Positions 43,774 to 59,665 of a stretch of 64,000 nucleotides of DNA are shown piece by piece. Source of the stretch: Flavobacterium soyae. Its GTDB lineage: Bacteria; Bacteroidota; Bacteroidia; Flavobacteriales; Flavobacteriaceae. The notes below the pieces were generated by a model that was not told where the DNA came from, ran no database searches, and saw only the letters and a list, made by a program, of their open reading frames with translations. Within the stretch, counting starts at the first letter, position 1. Each line of letters begins with the position of its first letter. A program made the translations under genes and the position numbers. Location of the stretch: NCBI RefSeq assembly GCF_021245985.1, contig NZ_JAJQXA010000012.1:96383-160382 (forward strand), written 5' to 3'.

Positions 43774-45684
43774 TTACTTTACTTCGATAATCTTATTTTT
43801 TATGCCAATACCGTTTTCATTAAAGGCTTCTATAGTAAAATAATACTTTGTTCCTTTGTCTAAACCTCTAAAATCGTACGTGTTATCTCCATAAACCATA
43901 ATACTGTTGTATAATTTATCCGGAGCAATTCCATAATAAATATTATATCCAACGGCATCATTTTGTTTTTTCCATGAAATCATAGCGTTTCTTGAATCCA
44001 GTTTATTTCTGTCCACTTTAAACGACGTAACCGCTTTTGGTTTCTCTGATAATCCATTTCCAAAAACTCTGAAATCTGAAATAGCAAACAATCCAGATGC
44101 ATTGTGAATGTTAACCATTTTTATGTAACGTGCTTTAAACGATTTTGTTAATTCAACATAATCATGTGGTGCATCTTTATCATTTTTAGATTTGTCAACC
44201 ACCAAAGTCCAGTTTTGTGCATCATCAGACATAAAAATTTTATACTGATAATAAATATCCATCGCCTTGTTATACTGCGTTGCTTTATGGTCTGCATAAT
44301 TGATCTGCAAGGCCTTAATTTCCATTTGACGGCCTAAATCCATTTGAAGCCATTCGTCCGGATTTCCTGTTTTAGCAGACCAATAGGTTTGGATATTTTC
44401 ATCGGTTAAATTTTCAGGGCCATAACAAAATTTCTCGTAAACTTTTTTTCCGCCGTTATCCATTCTGTGTGTTTCAACTTCTAAACATTCCTCAGAAGAA
44501 GAAACAGTTACAGGCTTTTTATACGAAAGTAACATCCATCCAGATGAAGCTCCTTTTGTCTGATCACGATTACCCGTTGGAAGAACAATTGGAAAATCTC
44601 CATAAGAAGTTATCGAATACATAACATCATCTTTATCAAAACCTGCCGGAAACATATCGATACGACGCTCAAAACGGTCTTTTATAGAAATCTTACATGT
44701 TCCTGTGTTCCAATAATTTCCGTAGTTATCTGCAAAAGTATTTCCGTGTCCAGCTCCAATCACAAATCCGCCTGGTTTATATGACATTGGATTGTGTTTT
44801 TGATAGGTAAATGGCCCTAACGGATTATCTCCAACATGAACTCCGTTTGCATAACCTTTAAATTCAGTTGCAGGTGCGCCATATTGCATATAATATTTTC
44901 CGTTGTGTTTGGTCATCCACGCTCCTTCAATGAAATTTCCCCAAGGTGCTGGTTCCATATCATTGTTTGGGCCAAAACGTTCCCAGCCGTGCGCTGCAGG
45001 GTCTAAAACAGCAACTTCTTTGATCTGCCCATACGGACGCTGAATATCTTCTACTTCTGTTGCTTTGTATAATTGTGCATAATCGGCCTGATTTCCTTTT
45101 GGAAGCCATGTATTATAATCAACCTCTGTTCCTACAAGCGGCAGCTTTCCGCTTGAACCGTAATACATATATACTTTCTTGTCATCATCCTGAAAAATCG
45201 CAGGATCCCAAGTTGGCAGCATGGCTTTGTCTACGTGACGTGTCCATCTTCCTGATTTTGGATCGGCAGTTTTCCAAATTGGATGATCTCTATTCCATGT
45301 TGAACCCACATAAAATAAAGTATCGTTTACAACCCACGCCGCAGGGGCGCATTGATCGTCGTCACCAGGTTTTCTTTGAAAACTTCCATAAACAAAATTC
45401 CAGTCTGACATATCTTTACTCCAGAAGAAACCTGCCTGATTCGTAGCAAATAAATAGTATTCGCCTTTATAGGTAATAATTACCGGATCGGCACTGGAAC
45501 GGCGCGATTCAGGAATTCCATTATGATTGTGAGTAGTAAAATTGTATCCAATATTAATTGGATTACAATAAGTTGTTGCAGGTTTATTTGGGTCAAACCA
45601 ATCTGTTTTCCCGGGAATATTAGCTTTTTGCGGCCAAATACTTGTTGTACAGGCAGCCAAAAGCAATAGGAATATCTTTTTCAT
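43774..45684 (-). CDS. GH43-like glycosidase with F5/8C and fibronectin III domains
   Basis: A 636-residue exported protein from the ATG at 45684; the frame extends to a TTG at 45714 but MKKIFLLLLAACTTSIWPQ is the natural signal peptide. Residues about 55-370 form a five-bladed propeller of the GH43 type. The probable catalytic base is in RRSSADPVIITYKGEYYLFA, a second acidic residue in MLPTWDPAIFQDDDKKVYM, and the acid in GNFIEGAWMTKHNGKYYM. A discoidin-like F5/8C domain follows (about 410-545, YWSAKTGNPDEWLQMDLGRQ), then one FN3 domain (about 550-636). GH43 enzymes act on arabinosyl, xylosyl or galactosyl linkages; the linkage cut here is not predictable. Last gene of the PUL. Confidence 0.85.
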   Translation of the reverse strand: MKKIFLLLLAACTTSIWPQKANIPGKTDWFDPNKPATTYCNPINIGYNFTTHNHNGIPESRRSSADPVIITYKGEYYLFATNQAGFFWSKDMSDWNFVYGSFQRKPGDDDQCAPAAWVVNDTLFYVGSTWNRDHPIWKTADPKSGRWTRHVDKAMLPTWDPAIFQDDDKKVYMYYGSSGKLPLVGTEVDYNTWLPKGNQADYAQLYKATEVEDIQRPYGQIKEVAVLDPAAHGWERFGPNNDMEPAPWGNFIEGAWMTKHNGKYYMQYGAPATEFKGYANGVHVGDNPLGPFTYQKHNPMSYKPGGFVIGAGHGNTFADNYGNYWNTGTCKISIKDRFERRIDMFPAGFDKDDVMYSITSYGDFPIVLPTGNRDQTKGASSGWMLLSYKKPVTVSSSEECLEVETHRMDNGGKKVYEKFCYGPENLTDENIQTYWSAKTGNPDEWLQMDLGRQMEIKALQINYADHKATQYNKAMDIYYQYKIFMSDDAQNWTLVVDKSKNDKDAPHDYVELTKSFKARYIKMVNIHNASGLFAISDFRVFGNGLSEKPKAVTSFKVDRNKLDSRNAMISWKKQNDAVGYNIYYGIAPDKLYNSIMVYGDNTYDFRGLDKGTKYYFTIEAFNENGIGIKNKIIEVK

Positions 45685-45740
45685 TTGTATTCTTTTTAAG
45701 TTTATAGAATTCAATCTCTTAGTAAAATGATGATGAAAAT

Positions 45741-46526
45741 CTATTTTTTTTCTTTTAATCTTTCGCTTAAAAGTTCAGGTTCGTTTGTGGTAATGTAATT
45801 GAATTTATTTTCTATAATCCAATCCATATCAGCCGCTTCGTTAACTGTCCAGGCATTTAGAATTATATTATTGTCTTTTGCTTCTTTAATCCATTCAGGA
45901 TGTTTTTTAAAGACTGAATAATGATAATCAACACCGTTAATATTATCTATTTTTACTTCTTTCGGAGATTTATTTCCTTCTAAATACTGCAAAACCGTTT
46001 TCTGGTCAACTTGTCTAATTTGTTTTAGAATTTCATAGTCAAAACTTATGTAACAGGTATTTTTATCTGCTTTTAGTTTTTTGATGGTTTCAACTGCTTT
46101 TATGGCAGTTTGTTTTCCTCTTTCTTTATTAATTTCCGAAGGTTTTATTTCGCAGACTAAAAGAGTGTGTTTGTTGTTCTTTTTTCCTTCTGAAATATAT
46201 TCGTGTAATGTTGGAAGTTTTTCTCCATTAGAAAGTTTAAACTTTATTAAGTCAGCATAATTGGTTTGTTCGATAAGCAATTTGTTATAATGCGCATCGT
46301 GGTTGATTACGAGCGAATCATCTGCGGTTCTCCAAACGTCAAATTCTGAACCGGGCAATTTTAAGTCAATGGCATGTCTTAAAGATGCGATAGAATTTTC
46401 GGGAAGATTATTTTTTTTCCATGCACCACGGTGTGCCACTATTGCATTCTCTTTTACGCAGCACGATTGAAAAACAATTGTTACTGCTAAAAAAAGTGGT
46501 ATTTTGAGTGCTTTAATAGTTTTCAT
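45741..46526 (-). CDS. Lipoprotein glycerophosphodiester phosphodiesterase (GDPD)
   Basis: A 261-residue TIM barrel. MKTIKALKIPLFLAVTIVFQSC is a lipoprotein signal. Catalytic motifs are complete: AHRGAWKKNNLPENS (His-Arg and Glu), GSEFDVWRTADDSLVINHD (metal-binding Glu/Asp and catalytic His), LVCEIKPSE (Glu) and ILNAWTVNE. The family hydrolyses glycerophosphodiesters to glycerol 3-phosphate and an alcohol. Because it is exported and sits between bglX and the GH43-like gene, it may remove phosphoglycerol groups from the glycan handled by the PUL (inference); housekeeping phospholipid scavenging is the alternative. Confidence 0.93.
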   Translation of the reverse strand: MKTIKALKIPLFLAVTIVFQSCCVKENAIVAHRGAWKKNNLPENSIASLRHAIDLKLPGSEFDVWRTADDSLVINHDAHYNKLLIEQTNYADLIKFKLSNGEKLPTLHEYISEGKKNNKHTLLVCEIKPSEINKERGKQTAIKAVETIKKLKADKNTCYISFDYEILKQIRQVDQKTVLQYLEGNKSPKEVKIDNINGVDYHYSVFKKHPEWIKEAKDNNIILNAWTVNEAADMDWIIENKFNYITTNEPELLSERLKEKK

Positions 46527-46571
46527 TATTTTAAAAATTATGATTTATAAAAAATGTTCTTTTATAAAAAA

Positions 46572-46596
46572 GCCCTCCGTCAACCAAACGAAGGGC
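46572..46596 (-). terminator. Terminator after bglX
   Basis: Stem GCCCTCCGT/ACGAAGGGC (one G-U pair), 7-bp loop, T run on the minus strand. It separates the beta-glucosidase gene from the GDPD/GH43 pair, which may be expressed less or from their own promoter. Confidence 0.8.
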
Positions 46597-46617
46597 CCTT
46601 ACTAATCAATAAACCAA

Positions 46618-48918
46618 CTATTTAGTTAACTCAAAACTAACTTTCTTGTCGGCAGTTGAATTTCCTCCAACGAAAATATCAAACTGTCCAGGTTCTGCTG
46701 CGAATTGCAAATCAGAATTATAAAATTTTAAATCCTCAACAGTAATATCAAAACTTACTGTTTGTTTTTCACCTTTTTTAAGTGCTATTTTTTGGAAACC
46801 TTTCAATTCTCTAACTGGTCTTGTTACGGAACCAACTAAATCTCTAATGTATAATTGAACTGTTTCTTTTCCGTCAAAATTTCCTGTATTTGCTACGTCA
46901 ACCGTTACTTTTAGTTTTCCGCTGAAGTTCATTTTATCAGAAGAAATTTTAAGGTTTGAGTAATCAAAAGTCGTGTAGCTTAAACCAAAACCAAATGGGA
47001 ATAATGGCTCGTTTCTTTCGTCAATATAGTTTGATCTGAATTTTTCGAATTTTCCTTCTGTATTAGAAAGCGGTCTTCCAGTATTTTTGTGCGCGTAGTA
47101 AATTGGTAACTGCCCTACACTTCTTGGAAAAGTTGTTGTTAATTTTCCAGAAGGGTTTACATCTCCAAATAAAACGTCAGCAATTGCGTAACCTGCTTCT
47201 GTACCCGCAAACCAAGCATTTAAAATGGCTGGAACTGTTTTTTCTTCGTCAGTAATCACTAACGGACGTCCGTCAAATAATACTACAACTACTGGTTTTC
47301 CAGTTTTTAATAATGCGTTTAATAAGTCTTTTTGTGCTTGTGGAATTTCTAAATTCGTACGGCTGCTTGATTCCCCGCTCATTTCAGCAGATTCTCCAAG
47401 TGCAGCAATAATTACATCTGATTGCTGTGCAACTTTTAAAGCTTCTGCTAATAATTCTTCTTTTGAACGACCGTCACGGTGTAATGTTTTTCCAAACATT
47501 GTAGCTTTAGTTTCAAATTCTTCGTCGTAATCTAAATTACTTCCTTTAGCATATAAAACTTTTGTTGATGGTCCTGCAACTTCCTTAATTCCTGCCAATA
47601 ATGAAACAGCATTTTCCATTCTTGTAGCTACACTCCATGTTCCCGGCATGTTTTCTTTAGCATCTGCCAAAGGCCCGATTAAACCAATTGTTCCTGATTT
47701 TTTAAGAGGTAATAATTGATTTTGGTTTTTTAATAAAACCAATGATTGTGCAGCGATTTGACGTGCTTCTTTTCTGCTGTCTGCTGTGAATATTTCAGTT
47801 TTAGCTCTTTTTTCGTCGCAATATTTATATGGATCCTGGAATAATCCTAAATCATATTTTGCTTCTAAAATAAGTCTAACGGCATTATCTATTGTCTCGA
47901 TAGAAACTCTTTTTTCGTCTAATGATTTTTTCAATGTTCCTAAGAAACCTTCTCCAACCATATCCATTTCTACACCAGCATTTAATGCTAAGGCAGAAAC
48001 GTCTTGAAGGTTCCCCATTCCATGTTCGATCATTTCAGGAATTCCTGTAAAATCTGTCACTACGAAACCTTTAAAACCCCATTGTTTTCTTAAAACATCT
48101 GTCATTAACCATTTGTTTCCAGTTGCAGGAATTCCGTCAATTTCATTGAAAGAAGCCATAACTGAACCTACTCCAGCGTCAACAGCTGCTTTGTAAGGCG
48201 GGAAATAATCATTAAACATTCTGATATGGCTCATATCAACTGTATTGTAATCACGACCACCTTCTGGCGCTCCGTACAATGCAAAGTGTTTTACACACGC
48301 TAAAATGGAGTTGTTTTTTGAAAGATCGTGCTGTTGGTATCCGTTTACCATCGCTTTTGCAATCTGGCTTCCTAAATACGGATCTTCTCCTGAACCCTCA
48401 GAAACTCTTCCCCAGCGCGGATCACGGGAAATATCTACCATTGGTGAAAATGTCCAGTTGATTCCGTCTGCGCTTGCCTCTTTTGCAGCAATCTGTGCGC
48501 TTCTTTCAATTAAAGCCATATCCCAAGTACAAGATAATCCTAACGGAATTGGGAATGTTGTTTCGTAACCGTGAATAACATCCATACCAAAAAGCAATGG
48601 AATTTTTAAACGGCTTTGTTCTACAGCTATTTTTTGTACTTCTTTAATTTTTTGCACTGATTTTATATTGAACAAACCGCCCACTTTTCCTTCTGCGATA
48701 TTTTTTGCAACATTTGAGCTGTTTGCCTGCCCTGTTGTAATATCACCAGATGTTGGTAAATTTAACTGTCCTAATTTTTCCTCTAATGTCATTTTTGACA
48801 TTAACTCTGCTACAAACTCTGACTTAGGTTTAATTTTCACTGTACTTTTTGTGCTCTTTTTTTGAGCGTAACCCAAAACAGCACATCCTAAAAAAAGTAA
48901 GACTAATTTGTTTTTCAT
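46618..48918 (-). CDS. bglX: GH3 beta-glucosidase (BglX-like)
   Basis: A 766-residue exported enzyme (signal MKNKLVLLFLGCAVLGYAQ). Domains: GH3 TIM barrel at about 35-360 with MDVIHGYETTFPIPLG, KHFALYGAPEGGRDYN and the nucleophile Asp in KGFVVTDFTGIPEM; GH3 alpha/beta sandwich at about 390-620 with LLPLKKSGTIGLIGPLAD and AALGESAEMSGESSSRTNL (acid/base region); C-terminal FN3-like domain at about 660-760. It should release glucose from beta-gluco-oligosaccharides in the periplasm. With a GH144 enzyme upstream, sophoro-oligosaccharides are the likely substrate; GH3 enzymes with that specificity are known from Bacteroides. Confidence 0.93.
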   Translation of the reverse strand: MKNKLVLLFLGCAVLGYAQKKSTKSTVKIKPKSEFVAELMSKMTLEEKLGQLNLPTSGDITTGQANSSNVAKNIAEGKVGGLFNIKSVQKIKEVQKIAVEQSRLKIPLLFGMDVIHGYETTFPIPLGLSCTWDMALIERSAQIAAKEASADGINWTFSPMVDISRDPRWGRVSEGSGEDPYLGSQIAKAMVNGYQQHDLSKNNSILACVKHFALYGAPEGGRDYNTVDMSHIRMFNDYFPPYKAAVDAGVGSVMASFNEIDGIPATGNKWLMTDVLRKQWGFKGFVVTDFTGIPEMIEHGMGNLQDVSALALNAGVEMDMVGEGFLGTLKKSLDEKRVSIETIDNAVRLILEAKYDLGLFQDPYKYCDEKRAKTEIFTADSRKEARQIAAQSLVLLKNQNQLLPLKKSGTIGLIGPLADAKENMPGTWSVATRMENAVSLLAGIKEVAGPSTKVLYAKGSNLDYDEEFETKATMFGKTLHRDGRSKEELLAEALKVAQQSDVIIAALGESAEMSGESSSRTNLEIPQAQKDLLNALLKTGKPVVVVLFDGRPLVITDEEKTVPAILNAWFAGTEAGYAIADVLFGDVNPSGKLTTTFPRSVGQLPIYYAHKNTGRPLSNTEGKFEKFRSNYIDERNEPLFPFGFGLSYTTFDYSNLKISSDKMNFSGKLKVTVDVANTGNFDGKETVQLYIRDLVGSVTRPVRELKGFQKIALKKGEKQTVSFDITVEDLKFYNSDLQFAAEPGQFDIFVGGNSTADKKVSFELTK

Positions 48919-49010
48919 GTGTATTTAATATTTGTTTTTTAATGGAAATGGAATCGCTTTTCTTCATTCTATTTGTAATTTGGAATCATAGCGATTTCAT
49001 TCTATAATAT

Positions 49011-49724
49011 TTATTTGTTCATATTCAATTTTTTCTGTTTCAACATCCAGTCATAAATTTCGGGATTGTCATAAACTCTTGTCCAGCTGTCATGCCCTGC
49101 ATCATCAAAAATAGTTAACTGAACATCTTTTGCATTACACTTTTTTAGCTCTTTATAAACGCTTATGGCATAATCTACTTTTACCACATCATCTAATAAT
49201 CCGTGGAAAATTCTGGTTGGAATATTGGCTATTTCACAAGTTTTCTCTAACTGAATTAAATCTACAAAGCCAGCGACAGGTACGTTTGCGGCAAATAGAT
49301 CCGGATGTGCAAAAGCCAAATTCCATGATGCCCAGCCTCCTGAGCTTAAACCAGTAACATATATTCTTTCTGAATCAATTTTGTTCTCTTTCTGAATTTT
49401 TAAAATCAGTTCGTAAATTGATTCTGTATCCCAATTCTCCTGTTCTTTGCATTGCGGCGCCAAAACATAAGCGTCTAATGTATTTGTTTTTAAATATTTT
49501 AAAGGGCCGTGAACTTTTATTTTTTCAATATCTGTCCCTTTTTCTCCATCTCCTGAAATAAAAACTATTAGCGGCTTTTTATCTTTCGTATTTGCTGGTT
49601 TGTGTAGTACATAACCTAATTCATAATTGGTTACTACAACTGTTTTTAACTTTCCTGTTGTTTCACTTTGAGCAAAACCCAATACGGAAATAAAAAGCAA
49701 TACTAAACCCAGTTTATATTTCAT
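49011..49724 (-). CDS. Exported alpha/beta-hydrolase (CE1/phospholipase-like esterase)
   Basis: A 237-residue enzyme with a signal peptide (MKYKLGLVLLFISVLGFAQ). The catalytic triad is visible: Ser in YVTGLSSGGWASWN, Asp in IFHGLLDDVVKVD and His in FDDAGHDSWTRVY. The oxyanion region is LIVFISGDGEKG. The fold resembles poly(3-hydroxybutyrate) depolymerase/feruloyl esterase-type carbohydrate esterases. Thirteen bp after the GH144 gene, it probably removes acyl groups from the PUL substrate (inference). It could instead be a general esterase or peptidase. Confidence 0.85.
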   Translation of the reverse strand: MKYKLGLVLLFISVLGFAQSETTGKLKTVVVTNYELGYVLHKPANTKDKKPLIVFISGDGEKGTDIEKIKVHGPLKYLKTNTLDAYVLAPQCKEQENWDTESIYELILKIQKENKIDSERIYVTGLSSGGWASWNLAFAHPDLFAANVPVAGFVDLIQLEKTCEIANIPTRIFHGLLDDVVKVDYAISVYKELKKCNAKDVQLTIFDDAGHDSWTRVYDNPEIYDWMLKQKKLNMNK

Positions 49725-49737
49725 AATAGATTATATC

Positions 49738-51123
49738 TTAAAAACCGTATTTTCCTGATGTAAAGCCAAGCTTTTTTAAACCTTGTTTAGTATCAGATGC
49801 ATTCATAAATAACTTCCATAATAAACCAGTTCTGTAGTTTTCTATCATTGGCGCTATTGTTCCCTGATCGATCGCTAAATATCGAGGTGTTACCCAATTG
49901 TATTGCGGCGAAAAAGCATCATAAGGCCCTGCTATTCCAACATATTTTGCTTTGTTTTCATCATATAAATAATGCAGAAACTTCATAGATTCTACCGGCG
50001 TATAAGGAAACGATGATAATGCAGCAGTTGGCGAAATTACACCATTGTCATTATTAGGCTGGTGTGCTGTATAACCCGTTGTACCATCAGGGTTTCTGGT
50101 ATAGCTTGCTGTTAATCCCCAGCATTTATCTGAATAATCTTTAAAGCCTTTTGGGTTGGCGATACTGTACTGAACCATAATTTTAGCATGGTTTTGAGTC
50201 AATTGCCAGTAATCTGCATATTTATCTTTTAAGTTATTTGGATCTAAACCTAAATAAGAATAATGCGACCAGAACATTGGTCCAACATTTCCAGAAGCCC
50301 CATTGTAGTTTAAAACTACCGGAATACCGTATTGAGATCTGCCATCTGCTATAGCCCCATTTCTTGCCCAAGCTTTATGATAAGCTTCTGCAGAAATTGG
50401 ATGTGTTGGCGAAGAAGCTGCCATTACATACGTAATTAAACATTCGTTATATCCTTCTAGTTTAAAGTTCATTTCCCAACCATAATTTGGAGACCAATGC
50501 CAGTATAGTGCATCTTGTCCTTGTGTGTACCAATCCCATTCTACGCCTTTCCAAAGTTCATCAGCTTTTGTGGCTAATTCTTTTTCAGCTGTGCTTCCGT
50601 TTTTAAAATATTCTCTGATAGTAATTAATGCCTGGCAGACAAAAGAAGTTTCTACTAAATCTCCTCCATTATCTTTTGTACCAAACGGAATTACTTTTCC
50701 TGATTTATTATCCATCCAGTGCGGCCATGCTCCGTGAAAACGTTCTGCTTTTTCCAGAAAAGTTAATGCTGTTGTAAGTCTAGAAACAGCTTCTGCCCTA
50801 GGTAAAAAACCTCTTTCTACACCTACAATTATGCTCATTAAACCAAAAGCTGAGCCTCCTGTTGTTATAATATTTGCTTCAAAATTAGGATCATCAGTAA
50901 GATATCTTTCTCTTGCAAGTTTTGAATTAGAATCTGCATATTCCCAAAAATATTTTATTGCATCTTTCTGCACCTGATCCATAGCTTCAGCATCTGTTAA
51001 AGGCTTTGTTGGTGTGGTTGGAGTTGTTGGTAATGGGGTTCCGCCAGAGGTTCCGTCTGGTCCAGACGATGAACATGAGTTAAAAAAACTAAAAAGAGAG
51101 ACTATGTATATTGAAATTTTCAT
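49738..51123 (-). CDS. GH144-type (PF10091) lipoprotein, probable endo-beta-1,2-glucanase
   Basis: A 461-residue lipoprotein: signal MKISIYIVSLFSFFNSC, then a Ser/Gly/Thr/Pro-rich linker to about residue 42. The rest is an (alpha/alpha)6 barrel with AIKYFWEYADSNSKLARERY, GGSAFGLMSIIVGVERGFLP, GAWPHWMDNKSGKVIPFG, NGGDLVETSFVCQALITIRE, WNWHW-like ALYWHWSPNYGWEMNFKLEG and MFWSHYSYLGLDPNNL. PF10091 is often labelled 'glucoamylase', but family GH144 was founded on Bacteroidota endo-beta-1,2-glucanases of this layout, from memory. It probably cuts beta-1,2-glucan at the cell surface. A perfect hairpin separates it from the LamG gene. Confidence 0.87.
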   Translation of the reverse strand: MKISIYIVSLFSFFNSCSSSGPDGTSGGTPLPTTPTTPTKPLTDAEAMDQVQKDAIKYFWEYADSNSKLARERYLTDDPNFEANIITTGGSAFGLMSIIVGVERGFLPRAEAVSRLTTALTFLEKAERFHGAWPHWMDNKSGKVIPFGTKDNGGDLVETSFVCQALITIREYFKNGSTAEKELATKADELWKGVEWDWYTQGQDALYWHWSPNYGWEMNFKLEGYNECLITYVMAASSPTHPISAEAYHKAWARNGAIADGRSQYGIPVVLNYNGASGNVGPMFWSHYSYLGLDPNNLKDKYADYWQLTQNHAKIMVQYSIANPKGFKDYSDKCWGLTASYTRNPDGTTGYTAHQPNNDNGVISPTAALSSFPYTPVESMKFLHYLYDENKAKYVGIAGPYDAFSPQYNWVTPRYLAIDQGTIAPMIENYRTGLLWKLFMNASDTKQGLKKLGFTSGKYGF

Positions 51124-51155
51124 GTCGATAAATAATGTATTAACTAATTAAAATA

Positions 51156-51180
51156 CACCTGGAGGATAAACCTCCAGGTG
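51156..51180 (-). promoter_or_regulatory. Strong hairpin between the LamG and GH144 genes
   Basis: Perfect 10-bp GC-rich stem (CACCTGGAGG/CCTCCAGGTG, 5-bp loop), 12 bp after the LamG stop and 33 bp before the GH144 ATG. On the minus strand it is followed by TATTTTAATTAG, a poor T run. It may be a leaky terminator or an mRNA 3'-end stabiliser that favours susCD-LamG expression over the enzymes. Confidence 0.7.
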
Positions 51181-51192
51181 TGTAAAAAATGC

Positions 51193-52092
51193 TTATCTTT
51201 TGTCTTTTTCTAATTTATAAAGAGCTACGACTTCATTGTCAGTAAGAGCTGCATCATAAATTCTGAATTCGTCCATTAAGCCTGTATAATGAAGCATCCA
51301 CCCATCTGCATTGCCCCAAGGAGCACCTAAATGCTGCTGATAACCTCCAATGATAAATTTAGAAACTTCAGAATTTGCTAATTCTCCATAAGGAGCCCCT
51401 CCCGTTGTAGGATCGCTCGCATATCTTTTTGCAATAGATGCAGGGATATTCAGCTTTTGTCCATCAATGTAAATGCTATAAGTAGAACTTGTACCATTGT
51501 ATGTCCATACTAAATGTTTCCATGTTCCAAACATATTTATTAAAACATTTGCTCCGCCATGCTCAATAAATTGCCCTGCCCAGGGAATACTTGGTGTAAC
51601 ATCTTTTTGAATATGGTTTTTAAGCAGCATTGTTGTTGCTGGTCCTGTTCCTTCAATAAGTGTAAAAATATTTCCCCAAAAATCTGTTTTTTTAGGAAGC
51701 ATAAATAATGATTGTGCACCGCCAGTATGTGGATCTGTTTTAATCCACATTGAAACTGTTATGCTTTTTACGTTTACTACTGAATTTGCAACTGTATTAT
51801 ATGAAATAAAAGAACTAGGAGATCCTTTATAAGCTTCTCCTTTTATACCGGTTTCATAGGTTACATTTGTTGCTGATCCGTCTGTTATACTATTTTTTGA
51901 ATCTGCAATATTACCATCAAAACTAAATTTAGATACTAAGTGAGCAGCTGCAATATCATCTGAATTTTCATATCCTCCAATTGACTCATACGGAATTGGA
52001 CTGTTTACTTTATCAATACTATCTTCGCAGCCAGCAAACAATGCTGAAACCAAAACAAAAGAAAGCATGAAAATAGATTTATTTTTTTTCAT
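51193..52092 (-). CDS. LamG-domain lipoprotein (probable surface glycan-binding protein)
   Basis: A 299-residue lipoprotein (signal MKKNKSIFMLSFVLVSALFAGC). Residues about 50-290 are a LamG/concanavalin-like sandwich: LVSKFSFDGNIADSKNSITD, KSITVSMWIKTDPHTGGAQS, WKHLVWTYNGTSSTYSIYID and LMDEFRIYDAALTDNEVVAL. It occupies the place, directly after susD, where PULs encode the SusE/SusF-type surface glycan-binding protein. It has no catalytic residues I recognise. Eighteen bp after susD. Confidence 0.88.
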   Translation of the reverse strand: MKKNKSIFMLSFVLVSALFAGCEDSIDKVNSPIPYESIGGYENSDDIAAAHLVSKFSFDGNIADSKNSITDGSATNVTYETGIKGEAYKGSPSSFISYNTVANSVVNVKSITVSMWIKTDPHTGGAQSLFMLPKKTDFWGNIFTLIEGTGPATTMLLKNHIQKDVTPSIPWAGQFIEHGGANVLINMFGTWKHLVWTYNGTSSTYSIYIDGQKLNIPASIAKRYASDPTTGGAPYGELANSEVSKFIIGGYQQHLGAPWGNADGWMLHYTGLMDEFRIYDAALTDNEVVALYKLEKDKR

Positions 52093-52110
52093 TTTTAATG
52101 TCTTTAAGAA

Positions 52111-53565
52111 TTAATAACCAGGATTTTGAGCTGATAAACCATTTGCCTGTTTGATGAATGACGCCGGGATAGGAAATAATTCGTTTTTACCCTCAGTAAA
52201 AGTTTTTCCATCTACTGCAAAAGCAGCTTTAGCCTGACCTGTACGTACTAAATCAAAAAATCTGTCGTGCTCAAAAGCCATTTCTACTCTTCTTTCTTTC
52301 CAAATTGCAATTCTAACATCTGCTTGAGAAACTGCCGGAGTATTTCCTAAACCTGCTCTGTTTCTAATTTGGTTTAATAATGGAATAGCGTCTGAAGTTT
52401 GTCCTAGTTCATTTAATGCTTCTGCTTTCATTAATAAAACTTCGGCATATCTTAGGTATTTAATGTCAACATCTGTTTCCCAAGCACTAGTGTATAATGA
52501 TGAGTAAGCTTTGTAGTTGTATCTTTCATTTTCAACTGTTGTTGGAATAAGTCTTCCATCATATAAAGTTTGTCCTCTAAAAATGATAGTTGCAGCTTTT
52601 CTAACGTCACCAGCCTCGTATGCGTTTACTAAACTTTGAGATGGTGTATTAAACCCCCAGCCCCAGCCGCCAGTACCACGAGCACCTTGCGTGTTAGAAT
52701 ACCCTTCGATTCCTTTAGCAGGAACAGCTCCTTGTGCATAAATTTCGAAGATAGATTCTGAATCAAATTTTCCTGATGCTCTGTACATTGACGCATAATC
52801 GCTAACAATTGAGTAACCTGTAACTTTGTTAGCATTATCAATTACTTGCTGCCATTTCTTTTGATATAAACTTACTTTTGCTAATAATGCATAAGCAGCA
52901 CCCTTTGAAGCTCTTGATTTTTCATTAGCTCCATAAGCTCCTTTTTCAGGTAATGCAGCAATTGCATCATTTAAATCTGCTTCGATAAAAGCATATACTT
53001 CTGCAGGTGTTTTACGAGTTAACTGCATTATTCTGTCTGAGTCTGAACCCGGAACCGGTAAATGATCTACAATTGGTACTCCACCATAACATTTTACCAA
53101 AGTAAAATACATAAAAGCTCTTAAAAACTTAGCCTCACCTGCTAATCTGTTTCTTAAGGCAGCATCTACTTTATCTAATTTTGGAAGTATATTTAAGGCC
53201 TGATTACATCTGTTTATTCCATCATAATTGGCTATAAAAGTACTTTCTGCAGAAGGATTAGAAGCATTATAAGTCAAAGCATCCAATACATCTTTATCTG
53301 TTCCTGTATCTCCGGCAGAAGATCCTTTATCAGCATCATCAGATGTAATACTTGATAACCCGATCCAGCCGAATGAAGTCATATCCCAATTTAGAAACTT
53401 ATTATAAATTGCTGTCACGAACTGAGCTGCTCCTGCATCGTTATTAAATAACTCTACATCGCTTGTAGAAATAGATTCTGTTTGATCTACATCTAAATAA
53501 TCGTCTGCACATGCTGTAAAAAAGAATGCTGATAATACAAACGCTGCTATATATATCTTTTTCAT
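52111..53565 (-). CDS. susD: RagB/SusD-family glycan-binding lipoprotein
   Basis: A 484-residue lipoprotein (signal MKKIYIAAFVLSAFFFTAC). SusD hallmarks: ADDYLDVDQTESIS, NYDGINRCNQALNILPKLD, FLRAFMYFTLVKCYGGVPIV, a TPR-like helical core with ASKGAAYALLAKVSLYQKKW, and DIKYLRYAEVLLMKAEALNE with INQIRNRAGL and WKERRVEMAFEHDRFFDLVR. It forms the lid over the SusC channel and binds the oligosaccharide. Five bp from susC. Confidence 0.97.
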   Translation of the reverse strand: MKKIYIAAFVLSAFFFTACADDYLDVDQTESISTSDVELFNNDAGAAQFVTAIYNKFLNWDMTSFGWIGLSSITSDDADKGSSAGDTGTDKDVLDALTYNASNPSAESTFIANYDGINRCNQALNILPKLDKVDAALRNRLAGEAKFLRAFMYFTLVKCYGGVPIVDHLPVPGSDSDRIMQLTRKTPAEVYAFIEADLNDAIAALPEKGAYGANEKSRASKGAAYALLAKVSLYQKKWQQVIDNANKVTGYSIVSDYASMYRASGKFDSESIFEIYAQGAVPAKGIEGYSNTQGARGTGGWGWGFNTPSQSLVNAYEAGDVRKAATIIFRGQTLYDGRLIPTTVENERYNYKAYSSLYTSAWETDVDIKYLRYAEVLLMKAEALNELGQTSDAIPLLNQIRNRAGLGNTPAVSQADVRIAIWKERRVEMAFEHDRFFDLVRTGQAKAAFAVDGKTFTEGKNELFPIPASFIKQANGLSAQNPGY

Positions 53566-53569
53566 AATA

Positions 53570-56500
53570 TTAAAATTTTAAATTAGCACCAAGTACAAAT
53601 GATCTTAAAGTTGGGTAAGCATCAAGCTCAACACCTTGAGTTCCATAAGGATTTCCATCTCCGTTTAATTCTGGAGTGAACCCTGAGAATTTTTGTGTAA
53701 TAAATGGATTAATCGCATTTAAATAAATTCTGCATGCACTTATGAAACTACCTTCCTGCAATGGTAATTTGTATCCTAGTGTAATATTGTTGATTCTAAA
53801 AAAGTCCCCTGATTCTAAGTAATAAGTAGAAGCCACCGGCACCTGATTAAAAGGTGCAGGATTTGAAGCTGTTACATTATTTGCTGTCCAGAAATCAGTA
53901 GCAATTGAGTTTTCGATGTTTTCTCCGTAAAAACGCTGTGCTTTTTTCCCGTTGTATACTTTTGCACCAGCGGTACCATAACCATCAACAGAAAAATCAA
54001 AGTTTTTGTAATTGAATCCTAAAGAAACTCCGTAATTAGATTTTGGTAAACTTGAACCAACATATTTTTTGTCGGCTGTAGCACTCAAAGCATCCTGAGT
54101 TACTTTATCTCCTGCAGCATTGTAGTATAACATTTTTCCTGTTGCAGAATCAAAACCAGCGTACTCATAGATATAAAAACTTCCTAATGGCTGACCTATA
54201 GTAGTGTTATCAAGTAATTTGGTATCCTGACCATTTCCTAATCCACCTCCAATAACCGGAGATAAAATAACATTTTTTAAACCAGTAAGCTCATTTTTAT
54301 TGTTAGAGAAGTTACCCCCAACATAGTAGCTGAAATTTTCGCCTATTTTATCATCCCAGCGTAAAGAGATTTCAAAACCTTTGTTAGACACTTCTCCAAC
54401 GTGTGCCGGTGATGCAGAAGTAATTCCTGATGTCATATAAGGCTTTGTATTCAAAATTACGTTGTCTGTATTTTTATCATACACGTCAAAAGTTCCTTTT
54501 AATCTGCTGTCTAAAAACTCAAAATCTAAACCTGCAGAAGATTCCTCAGTAACTTCCCAAGACAAACTTGGGTCAATTTGTGAGTTAATTGTAGTTCCTT
54601 CATTTAAAATAGAACCTCCTAAATAGGCATTCAGACCTGAAGTATAACCCTGACTGTTAAGCGGTACATTTTGATTTCCTAATTTACCCCAGCTTCCTCT
54701 TAATTTTAATAAGTTAAGTCCTTTAACATCAGCCATGAAATTTTCTTTGGTAATGATCCATCCTGCTCCAAAAGCCGGGAATGTTCCCCAACGATAATCT
54801 TTAGCAAAATTTGAAGATCCATCACGTCTAACTGTTCCTGTCAATAAATATCTATCCATCAATTTGTACTGGAAACGACCTAAGTAAGATGCTAATTTAG
54901 TTTCGTTAAAAACCTCATCTTTATAACTTGTTACATTTGTCGCATATTCAACATCTTTTAAAGACCAATAATTAGCATCAGCATTTACATTCTTTCTTTT
55001 AATGGTCAATTTTTCTCTTGATCCTTTAACATAGGTTTCAATACCAGCAGTCACTTCGACATCGTGGATTTCGTTAAATACTTTATTATATGTTAAGTAG
55101 TTAGATAAACTCCAGTTATAGTATTGTTCTCTTCCTTTTGTTAATAAATTGATATTAGCAGTTGGAAACTCTGTTCTATAATCCGTTGACGTTTTATTAG
55201 GATTTGCAGCTAACCAAATGTTTTCTGTATCATCATAATTATATTGTTTCCAAGTATAATATTCACCATTAAATTGTGAAGTAAATTTTAAAGATTTAAA
55301 AATTTCATAATCTAATTTTAAACCTCCTTGTAAAGTAATACTTCGTTGTTGTTCATCAAAGAAATCAAGTTGAGCAACCGGATTTCCAACATTATTAATT
55401 GAGTTTCCAGTTTCACTTGCAAAACCATCATCTCCAACACGAGCCACTCCATATTTGCCATCTGCAAAATATACAGGAACTACAGGTGATTGTTTGTAAG
55501 CATTTGTAAAAGCTGATAATGGCTGTGGAGCTGATTTAGTTGATGTTAAACTAAAATTTTGAGTTAAAGTTAGTTTCTTAGAAATTTTATATTCATTATT
55601 ATTTCTAAAAGTAGTACGGCCATAATCTAAACCGTTTAATATCCCTTTTTCTTCATAATTTCCTAAACTGAAAAAGTATTTAATGTTTTCTGTAGCTCCA
55701 GAAACAGATATGTTATTTTGAGTATAACTTCCTGTTCTTGTAATCTCGTCAAACCAATCTGTATTAACAGGCTGGTCCTGAGAATATGTAGTAGATTGTA
55801 AAGCCGAATTGGTATAGTATGCATATTTATTACTACCCGCCATTTTTACTTTTTTAAGCGGAGTTCTTACACCACCAAAGCTTTCAATTTCAACAGAGAC
55901 TTTATCTCCTTTACCTTTTTTAGTAGTAATAATGATTACTCCATTTGCAGCTCTTGTACCATAAATAGCTAAGGCAGAAGCATCTTTTAAAATGTCATAT
56001 GAAGTAATATCATTTGTATTGATATTGTTGATATTTTCTGTTGCCATACCATCTACAATATACAAAGGTGTTCTTCCTCCTAAAGCTGTACCTAAACCTC
56101 TAATTACTACAGAAGGAGTACTTCCTGGTACATCAGAAGAAGTTACTTGTACACCTGCCGCTTTACCCTGAATAGCCTGAGATGCATTTAGAACTTTTGT
56201 TTTTGCTACATCTTCTCCTTTTAGTGAAGAAATTGCTGTAGTATTGTCAATCTTTTTTCTGGTACCGTACCCAATTACAACAACTTCTTTTAAGGCAGTA
56301 TCAGCTGCTTCTTTTAAAGTGATTGTCATTGGTGTGGCAGCTGCCGGTACAGAAACTGAGTCAAAACCTAACATAGAGACTTTTAAAATGTCTCCGGGTT
56401 TTGCATTGATGGTAAAGTTTCCGTCGAAATCTGCATCAGCAGTTGCTCTGGCATCAGATGAAGCAATTACCGCTCCGGGAATTCCCATTCCGCTGCTGTC

Positions 56501-56590
56501 AACTACTTTTCCTTTAATTGCTTGTACCTGCCCAGACATATACGCTGGCAGTAATAAGAGCGCTAAAAAGCTAAAAATAAAATTTTTCAT
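53570..56590 (-). CDS. susC: SusC/RagA-family TonB-linked outer-membrane transporter
   Basis: A 1006-residue receptor with a signal peptide (ends PAYMSGQ), a carboxypeptidase-D regulatory-like domain at about 24-95, the SusC signature KEVVVIGYGTRKKID near 100, a plug at about 110-230 (VIRGLGTALGGRTPLYIVDG, ANGVIIITTKKGK) and a 22-strand barrel ending AYPTLRSFVLGANLKF. It imports oligosaccharides with SusD, powered by TonB. First gene of the PUL operon; two palindromic sites lie in the 245-bp gap to the regulator. Confidence 0.97.
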   Translation of the reverse strand: MKNFIFSFLALLLLPAYMSGQVQAIKGKVVDSSGMGIPGAVIASSDARATADADFDGNFTINAKPGDILKVSMLGFDSVSVPAAATPMTITLKEAADTALKEVVVIGYGTRKKIDNTTAISSLKGEDVAKTKVLNASQAIQGKAAGVQVTSSDVPGSTPSVVIRGLGTALGGRTPLYIVDGMATENINNINTNDITSYDILKDASALAIYGTRAANGVIIITTKKGKGDKVSVEIESFGGVRTPLKKVKMAGSNKYAYYTNSALQSTTYSQDQPVNTDWFDEITRTGSYTQNNISVSGATENIKYFFSLGNYEEKGILNGLDYGRTTFRNNNEYKISKKLTLTQNFSLTSTKSAPQPLSAFTNAYKQSPVVPVYFADGKYGVARVGDDGFASETGNSINNVGNPVAQLDFFDEQQRSITLQGGLKLDYEIFKSLKFTSQFNGEYYTWKQYNYDDTENIWLAANPNKTSTDYRTEFPTANINLLTKGREQYYNWSLSNYLTYNKVFNEIHDVEVTAGIETYVKGSREKLTIKRKNVNADANYWSLKDVEYATNVTSYKDEVFNETKLASYLGRFQYKLMDRYLLTGTVRRDGSSNFAKDYRWGTFPAFGAGWIITKENFMADVKGLNLLKLRGSWGKLGNQNVPLNSQGYTSGLNAYLGGSILNEGTTINSQIDPSLSWEVTEESSAGLDFEFLDSRLKGTFDVYDKNTDNVILNTKPYMTSGITSASPAHVGEVSNKGFEISLRWDDKIGENFSYYVGGNFSNNKNELTGLKNVILSPVIGGGLGNGQDTKLLDNTTIGQPLGSFYIYEYAGFDSATGKMLYYNAAGDKVTQDALSATADKKYVGSSLPKSNYGVSLGFNYKNFDFSVDGYGTAGAKVYNGKKAQRFYGENIENSIATDFWTANNVTASNPAPFNQVPVASTYYLESGDFFRINNITLGYKLPLQEGSFISACRIYLNAINPFITQKFSGFTPELNGDGNPYGTQGVELDAYPTLRSFVLGANLKF

Positions 56591-56633
56591 ACAGTTTGTA
56601 ATCGTTTAAGTTAGTAGAGCCAAATTAAGCAAT

Positions 56634-56645
56634 TACAACGTTGTA
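56634..56645. promoter_or_regulatory. 12-bp palindrome upstream of susC
   Basis: TACAACGTTGTA, a perfect palindrome 44-55 bp upstream of the susC ATG. A candidate operator for the adjacent LuxR-type regulator; position and symmetry are the only evidence. Confidence 0.4.
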
Positions 56646-56679
56646 GTACATCAAAAACCACTACAGCATAGCCACATCA

Positions 56680-56695
56680 TTGTGTTAAAACACAA
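56680..56695. promoter_or_regulatory. Second inverted repeat upstream of susC
   Basis: TTGTGTT-AA-AACACAA, arms of 7 bp with a 2-bp spacer, about 90-105 bp upstream of the susC start. A candidate activator site for the PUL regulator. Confidence 0.4.
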
Positions 56696-56834
56696 GCGTA
56701 TCCTAATGATTATCAGTATCATAAATGTTAAATTAATTTCATTAACATAACCTTATGATGTAGTAATGATGTATTGGAATTATGTAAATTTTGATGTGAA
56801 AAAATATAAATTCTATAAAAAACAAACTCAAATC

Positions 56835-59579
56835 TTACAGAGTTAATAAAAACTTTGACAGGTTTTCGTCCTGAGTCAGATTTAATTTCTTTCTTAGACG
56901 ATATCTGTGCAGTTCTACACCTCTAAAAGAGATGTTCATCATAGGTGCAATTTCCTTAGAAGAAAGGTTCATTTTAAGATAAACACACAGTTTTATATCT
57001 TTTGGGGTTAAGTGCGGATATTTTTTAGACAGATTTATGATAAACTCATTATGAATTTGATTCAAGTTTGTCTCGAATATTTCCCATTCGTGCTTATTTA
57101 CTTCATTTATCTTGATTGCTTTTTTTATCTCGCTTTTAAGTTTGTTAAAATCTTTTTCAGAATCTAAAATGCTTTGGATATTGTCAATCATTTCGCTTTG
57201 CTTAGCAATTGATAAAGATTTTCCGGCAACCTCAGAAGATTTTGTCAGCAGTTCCAGTTCTAAAATATGTTTTTCATATTCCTGAATATTTAATTCGTTT
57301 TCCTTTTTTAATTCCATTTCAAGAATTTCACGCTGGTGCTTTAATTCTTCGGCCTGTAATTTTAATTTTTGAGTGTAACGAAGTTTATTCCATTTATAAT
57401 AGAAAAATAAAACCGCTGCTATTATTAACAGGTAAAGTAATATCATCCAAAAGGAGAAATACCACGGCTGTGCCACTCTAAAATCAAAACTGGAAACTTT
57501 ATCGTAATTGGCTCCGTCATGTTTAAAAATTGCAATTGAATGCGAACCGCTGCTTAAATTATTTAAAACTATTGCTCCATTTGAAATTGGGATATAATTT
57601 TTGCCTTTATTAATTTGATAAAACAAATTTGGTTTGCTTGCACCATAAATTCCGGAAATAACATTTATTCGAAGTTCTGTATTGTGTTTTATTTTTCCGT
57701 CGTTATCAAGCAGTTCATTATCATTGTAAGCTTCAACTTTAACGCCTTTGTTTTGTTTGTTTTCATATCCTAACTGAAGCGAAATAAATCCATCATCAAG
57801 ATTCAGTAAATAATGATTCTGGCTTCTAAAAATTCTCAGGTTTTCGTTAATCAGCTTTCCTTTATAATATTTCTCCTGAATGATGTTCCAGACAAACTTA
57901 TTATCGTGCGAATATATATGGTATAGAATTCCATCCTGAAGAACCATAAAATGATCCTTATCGATTGCTACAACGTCAGAGATGTTTTTGAAATTGGTGT
58001 TGAATAATTCATTTTCTTCTAATTTATTTGAAATAGAATTAAATGTGTACCAAACATTATTAATCAGAAAAAGGATTTCATTTCTAAATTCAAAAATCTT
58101 GACACCAAAATCATTTTTGATTTTGCTTTGCTGGGTGATATTTTCAACTTTTACAGTTTTAAAATTATCATCGAGAAAAACCCGATATAATCCGCGATAA
58201 TTGTCAGCTGCCCAAATTTCATTTTTTTTGTTTTGGGCTACATATTTAATGGGTTTCGAAAGATCATTTATCCTCAGATTCTGTGTTAGTTTTGATGCAT
58301 TATCATAAACTAAAACTCCGCTGTATGTAGACTGAAAGTAGGTATCGTTAATAGTACTTTTTGATAAATTCCATCCTCCGCTCACATTATTTATTTTTTC
58401 TAAAGCTCCATTTTCATAGCAAAAAGTTCCGTCGTTATGACCTATAACATATTTATTGCCAATTTTAGTAATATTCCAGCCCTGTCCTTGTGTATTGGGA
58501 AGCATTTTAAAATTACCCGAATCAAATTCAAAAATTCCGTGATTTGAAGCAATTAGATAACCTTTATCAATAGTAGCAACCGAATATACTGATCCCAGAA
58601 TTCCGGAATTATCATAAAAGAATGAAATAGGAGAATTGACCTCAACATGAGCAAGTCCGTTATCCAGGCCCAGCCATAAATCTTCTTCTTTATCAAAACC
58701 AATACTTAAAACCGAATTGTTCATTAAAACATTATTCCGGTCGATATTTTTAAAAGTATTGGTATTAAAATCATATATAAAAACCCCTTTATTTCCGGTT
58801 CCGACAACTAATTTGTTGTTTTTAATAAACTTGGCTACATTAATTCCATTTGATTTTAATGTTTCATTTAATGGATTATTCCAAGGTTTTAAACCATTAT
58901 TTTCAGCAATAAAAATCCCTTTTTTTTGTGTAAAAATATAAGTCCTGCCCTTGTATGTTTCGATCGCATGAACAACAGTGTTTTTTAAAACATCCCAGTT
59001 TTTTGGGGTTGCAATTTTGGAACCTTTCATTTTAAAAAGGCCTTTATCAACCGAAGCGACATACAAATTATTATCAACTACAAAACAGTAGGATATTAAA
59101 AAAGGAAATTTAATTTTTTGAATGCGTTTTCCATCGTAAATAAAAACGTCATTGAAAGACTGAAAATATAATGAGCCATTAAACCTGAAAATTTTCCAGA
59201 TTTCTTCATTGTCTTTTTCATCAAATAAGCGAAGATTTTTGGTAATTGAAACGTAGCGCATTTTACCATTTTCTCTATACCAATATCCAAATTCTTTATA
59301 AGAACCGGAATAAATTCGATCTCCCTCAATTAAAATAGAACGAATGATAGTTTTATTTGGCAGAGAATATTTTTCCCAGATAACGCCGTCATAACGCAAT
59401 AAATAATGGTTATTGGCAAAATACATAGCTTTATCTATACCCTGAGCCACATTCCAGATTTGGTTATCGCCCTGATAGTCTGATTTATTATAATTTTCTA
59501 CGAAAGGAAGTAGTTCTTGTGCTTGAATTTGAAAAGCAGCGAAAAACAAGAAAATTGATTTTAAAAGTATCGATTTCAA
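56835..59579 (-). CDS. Membrane-spanning propeller/triple-tyrosine LuxR-type regulator of the PUL
   Basis: A 914-residue protein read from the TTG at 59579, giving the signal peptide MKSILLKSIFLFFAAFQIQA; the frame reaches another TTG at 59633, but a TATCTTTG box lies between the two. Residues about 25-640 form a periplasmic beta-propeller of regulator type. A Y_Y_Y-like Ig domain follows (RINVISGIYGASKPNLFYQI), then one membrane helix (SFWMILLYLLIIAAVLFFYY), a coiled coil (KLKLQAEELKHQREILEMEL) and a C-terminal LuxR-type HTH (YPHLTPKDIKLCVYLKMNLS, SSKEIAPMMNISFRGVELHR). There is no kinase or receiver domain, so sensing is probably passed directly to the HTH. It probably senses oligosaccharide and activates susC. 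Confidence 0.9.
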   Translation of the reverse strand: MKSILLKSIFLFFAAFQIQAQELLPFVENYNKSDYQGDNQIWNVAQGIDKAMYFANNHYLLRYDGVIWEKYSLPNKTIIRSILIEGDRIYSGSYKEFGYWYRENGKMRYVSITKNLRLFDEKDNEEIWKIFRFNGSLYFQSFNDVFIYDGKRIQKIKFPFLISYCFVVDNNLYVASVDKGLFKMKGSKIATPKNWDVLKNTVVHAIETYKGRTYIFTQKKGIFIAENNGLKPWNNPLNETLKSNGINVAKFIKNNKLVVGTGNKGVFIYDFNTNTFKNIDRNNVLMNNSVLSIGFDKEEDLWLGLDNGLAHVEVNSPISFFYDNSGILGSVYSVATIDKGYLIASNHGIFEFDSGNFKMLPNTQGQGWNITKIGNKYVIGHNDGTFCYENGALEKINNVSGGWNLSKSTINDTYFQSTYSGVLVYDNASKLTQNLRINDLSKPIKYVAQNKKNEIWAADNYRGLYRVFLDDNFKTVKVENITQQSKIKNDFGVKIFEFRNEILFLINNVWYTFNSISNKLEENELFNTNFKNISDVVAIDKDHFMVLQDGILYHIYSHDNKFVWNIIQEKYYKGKLINENLRIFRSQNHYLLNLDDGFISLQLGYENKQNKGVKVEAYNDNELLDNDGKIKHNTELRINVISGIYGASKPNLFYQINKGKNYIPISNGAIVLNNLSSGSHSIAIFKHDGANYDKVSSFDFRVAQPWYFSFWMILLYLLIIAAVLFFYYKWNKLRYTQKLKLQAEELKHQREILEMELKKENELNIQEYEKHILELELLTKSSEVAGKSLSIAKQSEMIDNIQSILDSEKDFNKLKSEIKKAIKINEVNKHEWEIFETNLNQIHNEFIINLSKKYPHLTPKDIKLCVYLKMNLSSKEIAPMMNISFRGVELHRYRLRKKLNLTQDENLSKFLLTL

Positions 59580-59597
59580 GATATTCGGTTTTATATT

Positions 59598-59605
59598 CAA
59601 AGATA
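59598..59605 (-). promoter_or_regulatory. Predicted -7 box of the PUL regulator
   Basis: On the minus strand this reads TATCTTTG, 18 bp before the TTG at 59579. This supports that TTG over the one at 59633. Confidence 0.5.
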
Positions 59606-59631
59606 CTGACAAATATTCATTTTTTAAATGC

Positions 59632-59665
59632 AAAAAAAAGCTTCTGGATTGAGAAGCTTTTTTTT
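59632..59665 (-). terminator. Terminator of the pta-ackA-hypothetical unit
   Basis: A 14-bp stem AAAAAAAAGCTTCT/AGAAGCTTTTTTTT with a 6-bp loop, about 16 bp after the stop of the 218-aa hypothetical gene. Confidence 0.85.

What the first reader, a model, noticed from the sequence alone, without database searches (positions are those of the whole stretch)
43774..59579. PUL predicted to target decorated (anionic) beta-1,2-glucan
GH144-type and GH3 enzymes in one SusCD locus point to beta-1,2-glucan. Two further exported enzymes fit the substituents known on rhizobial and Agrobacterium cyclic beta-1,2-glucans: a lipoprotein GDPD could act on sn-1-phosphoglycerol groups, and a CE1-like esterase on succinyl-type esters. 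A PUL that strips charged groups from periplasmic glucans of other bacteria would be a new kind of substrate adaptation, sensible for a root-associated Flavobacterium. The GH43-like enzyme is not explained by this model.
Basis: partly seen in the sequence, partly recalled or inferred. Interest (0 to 1): 0.72.

Follow-up and report, generated by a model that had tools for sequence, protein, structure and literature searches.

The report
Beta-1,2-glucan uptake operon with phosphodiesterase
A soil or root Flavobacterium carries an operon for eating beta-1,2-glucan, a sugar chain made by other bacteria, and its own branch of the genus has added an enzyme that probably strips phosphate-linked groups from that sugar, a terrestrial counterpart of the sulfatases that related bacteria carry at the same kind of locus.

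Summary
The operon is real (window 59633-43774, minus strand): regulator, SusC, SusD, LamG lipoprotein, GH144, alpha/beta-hydrolase, GH3, GDPD lipoprotein, GH43. GH144 membership is firm: 54% identity to CpSGL, and every residue reported as essential there is conserved. GH3 belongs to the group that holds BT3567. The target backbone is therefore very likely beta-1,2-glucan, and GH144 PULs are already a known, abundant kind.
The GDPD is not an accident. In 229 Flavobacterium genomes, 38 of 38 close orthologues lie 3.2-4.6 kb from GH144, against 0 of 11 distant paralogues. It is nevertheless a lineage-specific add-on: 38 of 98 GH144 genomes have it, it was lost about four times, and none of 60 GH144 loci elsewhere has it (one independent case, L145). 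Its nearest relatives sit in other beta-glucan PULs, often fused to GH16. Other genera carry a dedicated sulfatase in GH144 PULs (published 2019) or a sugar-phosphatase relative. The GDPD variant I did not find in the papers searched.
Removal of a phosphodiester substituent is the best reading. Phosphoglycerol of the sn-1 type, succinyl esters and a rhizobial source remain unproven. The GH43 is a recurrent GH144 partner of unknown specificity. New variant of a known kind.

The parts
56835..59633 (-). Sensor/regulator, 932 aa, with C-terminal LuxR-type helix-turn-helix (PF00196)
   Evidence: first gene of the conserved block
53570..56590 (-). SusC/RagA TonB-dependent transporter
   Evidence: TIGR04056 725 bits
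52111..53565 (-). SusD-like lipoprotein
   Evidence: PF07980 and PF14322
51193..52092 (-). LamG (Laminin_G_3) lipoprotein, probable surface glycan-binding protein
   Evidence: PF13385; replaced or absent in some loci
49738..51123 (-). GH144 lipoprotein, predicted endo-beta-1,2-glucanase
   Evidence: PF10091; 54% identity to CpSGL; D151, D155, E158, E227 match CpSGL D135, D139, E142, E211
49011..49724 (-). Alpha/beta-hydrolase, predicted exported esterase (GxSxG, D, H motifs)
   Evidence: PF00326 best, PF00756 borderline; solved relatives 3doh, 4q82, 3wyd; motifs
46618..48918 (-). GH3 beta-glucosidase of the BT3567/JMB19063 group
   Evidence: phmmer 5xxl 1095 bits, 3u48 1168 bits
45741..46526 (-). 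GDPD lipoprotein, predicted phosphodiesterase
   Evidence: PF03009; H32 R33 E61 D63 H76 E126 invariant in 16 homologues; linked to GH144 in 38 of 38 Flavobacterium genomes
43774..45714 (-). GH43 + F5/8 type C + fn3, exported, unassigned subfamily (start more likely the ATG at 45684)
   Evidence: PF04616, PF00754, PF00041; relatives within 15 kb of GH144 in 39 of 79 hits across the phylum
42214..43605 (-). M28 peptidase, syntenic neighbour, probably not part of the glycan pathway
   Evidence: PF04389; 168-bp gap

Best explanation
It is a GH144-type polysaccharide utilization locus for a beta-1,2-glucan made by other bacteria, in a lineage-specific form whose added GDPD removes a phosphodiester-linked substituent from the glucan. 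Likely order of work: LamG and SusD capture the glucan at the surface; the GH144 lipoprotein cuts the backbone; SusC imports the pieces; the GDPD lipoprotein removes phosphodiester groups, most plausibly phosphoglycerol, by attack of a neighbouring hydroxyl through a cyclic phosphate; the exported esterase removes O-acyl groups; GH43 acts on a side group not yet known; GH3 releases glucose. Shown by sequence: the families, intact active sites, operon layout and GDPD-GH144 linkage. Inferred: the substrate, the order of steps and the identity of the substituents.
For: GH144 and GH3 assignments with GH144 catalytic residues conserved. In 229 Flavobacterium genomes all 38 GDPDs of at least 77% identity lie 3.2-4.6 kb from GH144 while 0 of 11 more distant GDPDs do. 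Independent GH144-GDPD adjacency in a genome outside the order (L145). The nearest other GDPDs (50-69% identity) are PUL proteins: 9 of 11 contexts have SusC/SusD, several are GDPD-GH16 fusions, with GH30, GH3 or an EEP relative of the mannosyl-6-phosphatase 4c1r nearby. Other GH144 PULs carry a dedicated sulfatase (16 of 17 orthologues within 12 kb of GH144, compared by hand) or the EEP protein. The genome lacks MdoG/OpgG, so it does not appear to make OpgG-type glucans itself.
Against: GDPD was lost about four times inside its clade with the rest of the operon kept and is absent from 60 of 60 GH144 loci sampled elsewhere, so it is not needed for beta-1,2-glucan use as such. Characterised GlpQ enzymes do not cleave sn-1-glycerophosphoryl groups (PMC7086022), the form expected on periplasmic glucans. 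GH43 has no known role on a pure glucan. No activity data exist.
Confidence: 0.55

Rival explanations
1. The operon degrades beta-1,2-glucan, but the GDPD only collects glycerol phosphate or phosphate from free glycerophosphodiesters and does not act on the glucan.
For: GDPDs commonly do this (family knowledge; PMC7086022). It can be lost without loss of the rest. The closest GDPDs outside this branch are in other PULs, so the protein is not tied to one sugar.
Against: Fixed slot in the operon and 38 of 38 linkage. The genome already has another GDPD, at C11. Homologues are fused to a glucanase domain.
Confidence: 0.2
2. The real substrate is a heteropolymer with a beta-1,2-glucan stretch, carrying side sugars removed by GH43 (and by GH97 in sister loci) as well as esters and phosphodiesters; it need not be a periplasmic glucan.
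For: Relatives of the GH43 sit within 15 kb of GH144 in 39 of 79 phylum hits and co-occur with GH144 by genome (67 of 76 against 105 of 395). GH97, GH2 or GH30 appear in sister loci. Lapebie et al. proposed an unknown polysaccharide for GH144 PULs (PMC6499787).
Against: GH43 and GH97 are absent from many GH144 operons, for example L177-L183. The subfamily's specificity is unknown and it could act on glucose.
Confidence: 0.17
3. The GDPD serves a different target that occurs together with beta-1,2-glucan, such as glycerol teichoic acid or phosphodiesters of fungal walls.
For: GlpQ degrades glycerol wall teichoic acid (PMC7086022). Related GDPDs sit with GH16, GH30 and GH3, a set that suits fungal or other beta-1,3/1,6-glucans.
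Against: The operon holds no teichoic-acid or chitin/mannan enzymes, and beta-1,2-glucan is not a known major fungal wall polymer (own knowledge).
Confidence: 0.08

Closest known systems
GH144-containing PULs of Bacteroidota (Lapebie et al. 2019, PMC6499787), including those with a sulfatase
   Same: SusC/SusD, GH144 and GH3 in one operon; an anion-removing enzyme added in one lineage
   Different: Here the added enzyme is a GDPD phosphodiesterase, not a sulfatase; the passages I read score sulfatases and peptidases as accessories and do not mention GDPD
CpSGL of Chitinophaga pinensis (GH144) and BT3567 of Bacteroides thetaiotaomicron (GH3)
   Same: 54% identity and conserved essential residues for GH144; the same GH3 group
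   Different: Activity of the window proteins not measured; JMB19063 scores slightly higher than BT3567 for the GH3
GDPD-GH16 fusion proteins of beta-glucan PULs (L143 shown by Pfam; PDB 7wwc and 7ww4, L146, L149, L150 by length and GDPD half)
   Same: Homologous GDPD domain inside glycan operons
   Different: Stand-alone lipoprotein here, with GH144 instead of GH16 and no EEP neighbour
GlpQ/LpgD glycerophosphodiester phosphodiesterases (PMC7086022, PMC10404611)
   Same: HRG, ExD, H and E active-site motifs; cyclic-phosphate chemistry expected
   Different: Only remote similarity; by motif the glutamine that holds the glycerol C3 hydroxyl in GlpQ (Gln188) appears to be Ile160 here; substrate unknown

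Membership tests
GH144 | Sequence similarity to CpSGL over the whole catalytic domain | tested here: met
   54% identity over 421 aligned residues; E 3.6e-154
GH144 | Residues whose mutation removes or strongly reduces CpSGL activity (D135, D139, E142, E211) and clan residues F268, Y330 | tested here: met
   D151, D155, E158, E227, F284, Y351; roles from PMC12102758
GH144 | Hydrolysis of beta-1,2-glucan | not testable with these tools
   needs an enzyme assay
Polysaccharide utilization locus | Adjacent susC and susD with CAZyme genes | tested here: met
GDPD family | PF03009 profile and intact metal and catalytic residues | tested here: met
   86.9 bits against a cut-off of 23.6; H32 R33 E61 D63 H76 E126 invariant
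GDPD family | Activity on a glycerophosphodiester, and its stereospecificity | not testable with these tools
   the AlphaFold model was too poor to judge the pocket (pLDDT 59.8)
Anionic beta-1,2-glucan PUL with GDPD | GDPD present in homologous GH144 PULs | tested here: inconclusive
   38 of 98 GH144 genomes in the genus, 0 of 60 loci elsewhere, one independent case L145
Carbohydrate esterase family CE1 | CE1 (PF00756-type) sequence | tested here: inconclusive
   PF00756 22.2 bits at a cut-off of 22, PF00326 56.6 bits
GH43 | PF04616 match and the D/D/E triad | tested here: met
   60.9 bits; D76, D170, E263 invariant in 25 homologues; fold match to GH43 from a low-confidence model

The most novel reading that the evidence does not exclude
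GH144 PULs across Bacteroidota share one beta-1,2-glucan backbone target and swap in different enzymes for different anionic substituents: GDPD for phosphodiesters in soil Flavobacterium, a dedicated sulfatase in other Flavobacteriaceae, and a sugar-6-phosphatase-like EEP protein elsewhere. The GDPD would then be the first described enzyme that removes phosphoglycerol from bacterial glucans for feeding.
Probability: 0.3. Interest if true: 0.68.

Novelty: new variant of a known kind. Interest (0 to 1): 0.5.

Why it matters
Phosphoglycerol- and succinyl-bearing periplasmic glucans of Proteobacteria are symbiosis and virulence factors, and enzymes that remove their charged groups in nature are not described in the papers I could search. 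If the GDPD does this, it gives a tool to edit such glucans and an example of soil bacteria feeding on the osmoprotectants of their neighbours. It also gives a terrestrial counterpart to the sulfatase-bearing GH144 PULs whose substrate is an open question. The recurrent GH43 partner makes a second open specificity testable.

Tried and rejected
AlphaFold of the GDPD (16 close homologues) gave pLDDT 59.8, so pocket and stereospecificity could not be judged. AlphaFold of the GH43 gave pLDDT 62; Foldseek found only generic GH43 xylosidase, arabinofuranosidase and galactosidase folds, and a profile search found no close solved relative. Mutual exclusion of GDPD and GH97 in the same slot looks strong (37 GDPD only, 24 GH97 only, 27 neither, 0 both; Fisher 1e-7), but the tree gives only five independent GDPD contrasts and no significant result, so I do not rely on it. 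A Flavobacterium-type promoter was not found upstream of susC. Contexts of GH43 copies away from GH144 were uninformative; they stand alone, in some genomes near housekeeping genes. A paper search for GDPD together with polysaccharide utilization loci returned none. The sulfatase pattern first looked new but was already published.

Full report
What is there. Between 59633 and 43774 on the minus strand lie nine genes in a row: a sensor/LuxR-type regulator, SusC, SusD, a LamG lipoprotein, a PF10091 protein, an alpha/beta-hydrolase, a GH3 enzyme, a GDPD lipoprotein and a GH43 enzyme with F5/8C and fn3 domains. Gaps from SusC to GH43 are 4 to 92 bp, and the gap before SusC is 244 bp. The M28 peptidase that follows is separated by 168 bp.

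Backbone target. The PF10091 protein matches CpSGL, the founding GH144 endo-beta-1,2-glucanase, with 54% identity over 421 residues. Residues reported as essential in CpSGL (D135, D139, E142, E211) and the clan residues F268 and Y330 (PMC12102758) are all conserved. The GH3 enzyme scores 1095 bits against BT3567, a known beta-1,2-glucooligosaccharide beta-glucosidase (identification from my own knowledge), but slightly more against JMB19063, so the GH3 alone does not fix the linkage. The block regulator-SusC-SusD-GH144-esterase-GH3 is conserved across Flavobacterium, and a shorter SusC-SusD-GH144-esterase-GH3 block is found in a second family of the order.

The GDPD. Its metal and catalytic positions (H32, R33, E61, D63, H76, E126) are invariant in 16 homologues and its lipobox cysteine nearly so. 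The GH144-anchored loci are biased towards finding operons, so I tested linkage with a genus sample not chosen for GH144. In 229 Flavobacterium genomes, 38 GDPDs have at least 77% identity and all 38 lie 3.2-4.6 kb from a GH144 gene; of 11 less similar GDPDs none does. In the other direction, 38 of 98 genomes with a close GH144 relative carry the linked GDPD. The GDPD also sits beside two GH144 subtypes that are only about 60% identical. On a GH3 tree the GDPD label needs five changes, compatible with one gain and four losses. It is therefore a stable but dispensable, lineage-specific module.

Outside the genus. None of 60 GH144 loci from other genera and orders has a GDPD nearby. One independent case exists in a genome outside the order: SusC-SusD-LamG-GH144-GDPD-GH27 (L145). 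The nearest other GDPDs (50-69% identity) are mostly PUL proteins themselves: SusC/SusD lie in 9 of 11 contexts (L143-L153). L143 is a GDPD-GH16 fusion by Pfam, beside EEP, GH2 and GH30; others have the same length and GDPD half, some beside GH3 or GH16. In five genomes an EEP-family protein, whose best named solved relative is the mannosyl-6-phosphatase 4c1r, lies next to the GDPD. GDPDs below 50% identity mostly stand outside PULs (L154-L162). This argues that the subfamily works on glycans and not on stray lipids.

Other anion-removing enzymes in GH144 PULs. In other Flavobacteriaceae, a sulfatase at 64-70% identity to the L227 copy lies within 12 kb of GH144 in 16 of 17 cases, while none of its 19 more distant paralogues does (distances compared by hand). 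Its solved relatives include 9s03 and a GlcNAc-6-sulfatase. The EEP protein also recurs near GH144. The sulfatase-bearing GH144 PUL is not new: Lapebie et al. 2019 described it for marine organisms and proposed an unknown sulfated relative of a terrestrial polysaccharide (PMC6499787). The genomes searched here are unnamed, so I do not claim their habitat. I found no paper that links GDPD with PULs, within an open-access library only.

GH43. Relatives of this GH43 lie within 15 kb of GH144 in 39 of 79 phylum-wide hits, where chance would give about 0.7% per pair, and 67 of 76 genomes with it also have GH144 against 105 of 395 overall (phylogeny is not corrected for). It is thus a recurrent partner of GH144. 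It has no close characterised relative, and its substrate is unknown.

Mechanism and its weak point. Periplasmic glucans carry succinate, phosphoglycerol and phosphoethanolamine (PMC11842490; PMC10514313). GDPD enzymes act through a cyclic phosphate formed by a neighbouring hydroxyl (PMC10404611), so phosphoglycerol fits the chemistry and phosphoethanolamine does not (inference). However, GlpQ enzymes are strictly specific for sn-3 glycerophosphoryl groups (PMC7086022), whereas glucan phosphoglycerol is sn-1 (own knowledge). A GDPD for this job needs altered glycerol recognition. By motif, the GlpQ glutamine that binds the glycerol C3 hydroxyl appears to be Ile160 here; this is suggestive only, as no reliable model was obtained. 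The review also states that the modified positions on linear periplasmic glucans are not known, so any statement about the position of the substituent is tentative.

The esterase. The alpha/beta-hydrolase has the serine-hydrolase motifs, is present in 67 of 90 Flavobacterium loci, and fits removal of some O-acyl group. Its CE1 label is borderline, and nothing here shows succinyl specificity.

Verdict. This is a GH144 beta-1,2-glucan PUL, a known kind, in a variant with a tightly linked GDPD that I judge more likely than not to act on a phosphodiester substituent.

Noticed in passing
L143, L146, L149, L150, L153: Loci with SusC/SusD and a GDPD (a GDPD-GH16 fusion in L143; similar length in L146, L149, L150) followed by an EEP-family protein related to a mannosyl-6-phosphatase, with GH30 or GH3 in some: possible PULs for a phosphate-bearing beta-1,3/1,6-glucan.
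   Followed up: partly
L103:14658-16757 and 23 other Flavobacterium loci: GH97 with SusB-like (inverting alpha-glucosidase) motifs fills the slot that the GDPD has in the window's clade; it could suit alpha-1,6-cyclised beta-1,2-glucans. The tree gives too few contrasts to test exclusivity.
   Followed up: partly
L227:13894-15600 and orthologues in other Flavobacteriaceae genomes: A sulfatase subfamily found almost only next to GH144; its solved relatives include a GlcNAc-6-sulfatase.
   Followed up: partly
L265:12746-17020 (own genome, contig C20): A second GH144 domain (44% identity) fused to an alpha-L-fucosidase (GH29) domain in a 1425-aa protein, outside any SusCD locus.
   Followed up: no
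L208:12465-13412 and L202:8038-8889: EEP phosphatase-like genes directly adjacent to GH144 in distant Bacteroidota; L202 also has a type I phosphodiesterase (PF01663) between GH144 genes.
   Followed up: partly
window:60347-63846: The operon lies close beside ackA and a phosphotransacetylase gene; the ackA neighbourhood is kept in many relatives.
   Followed up: no
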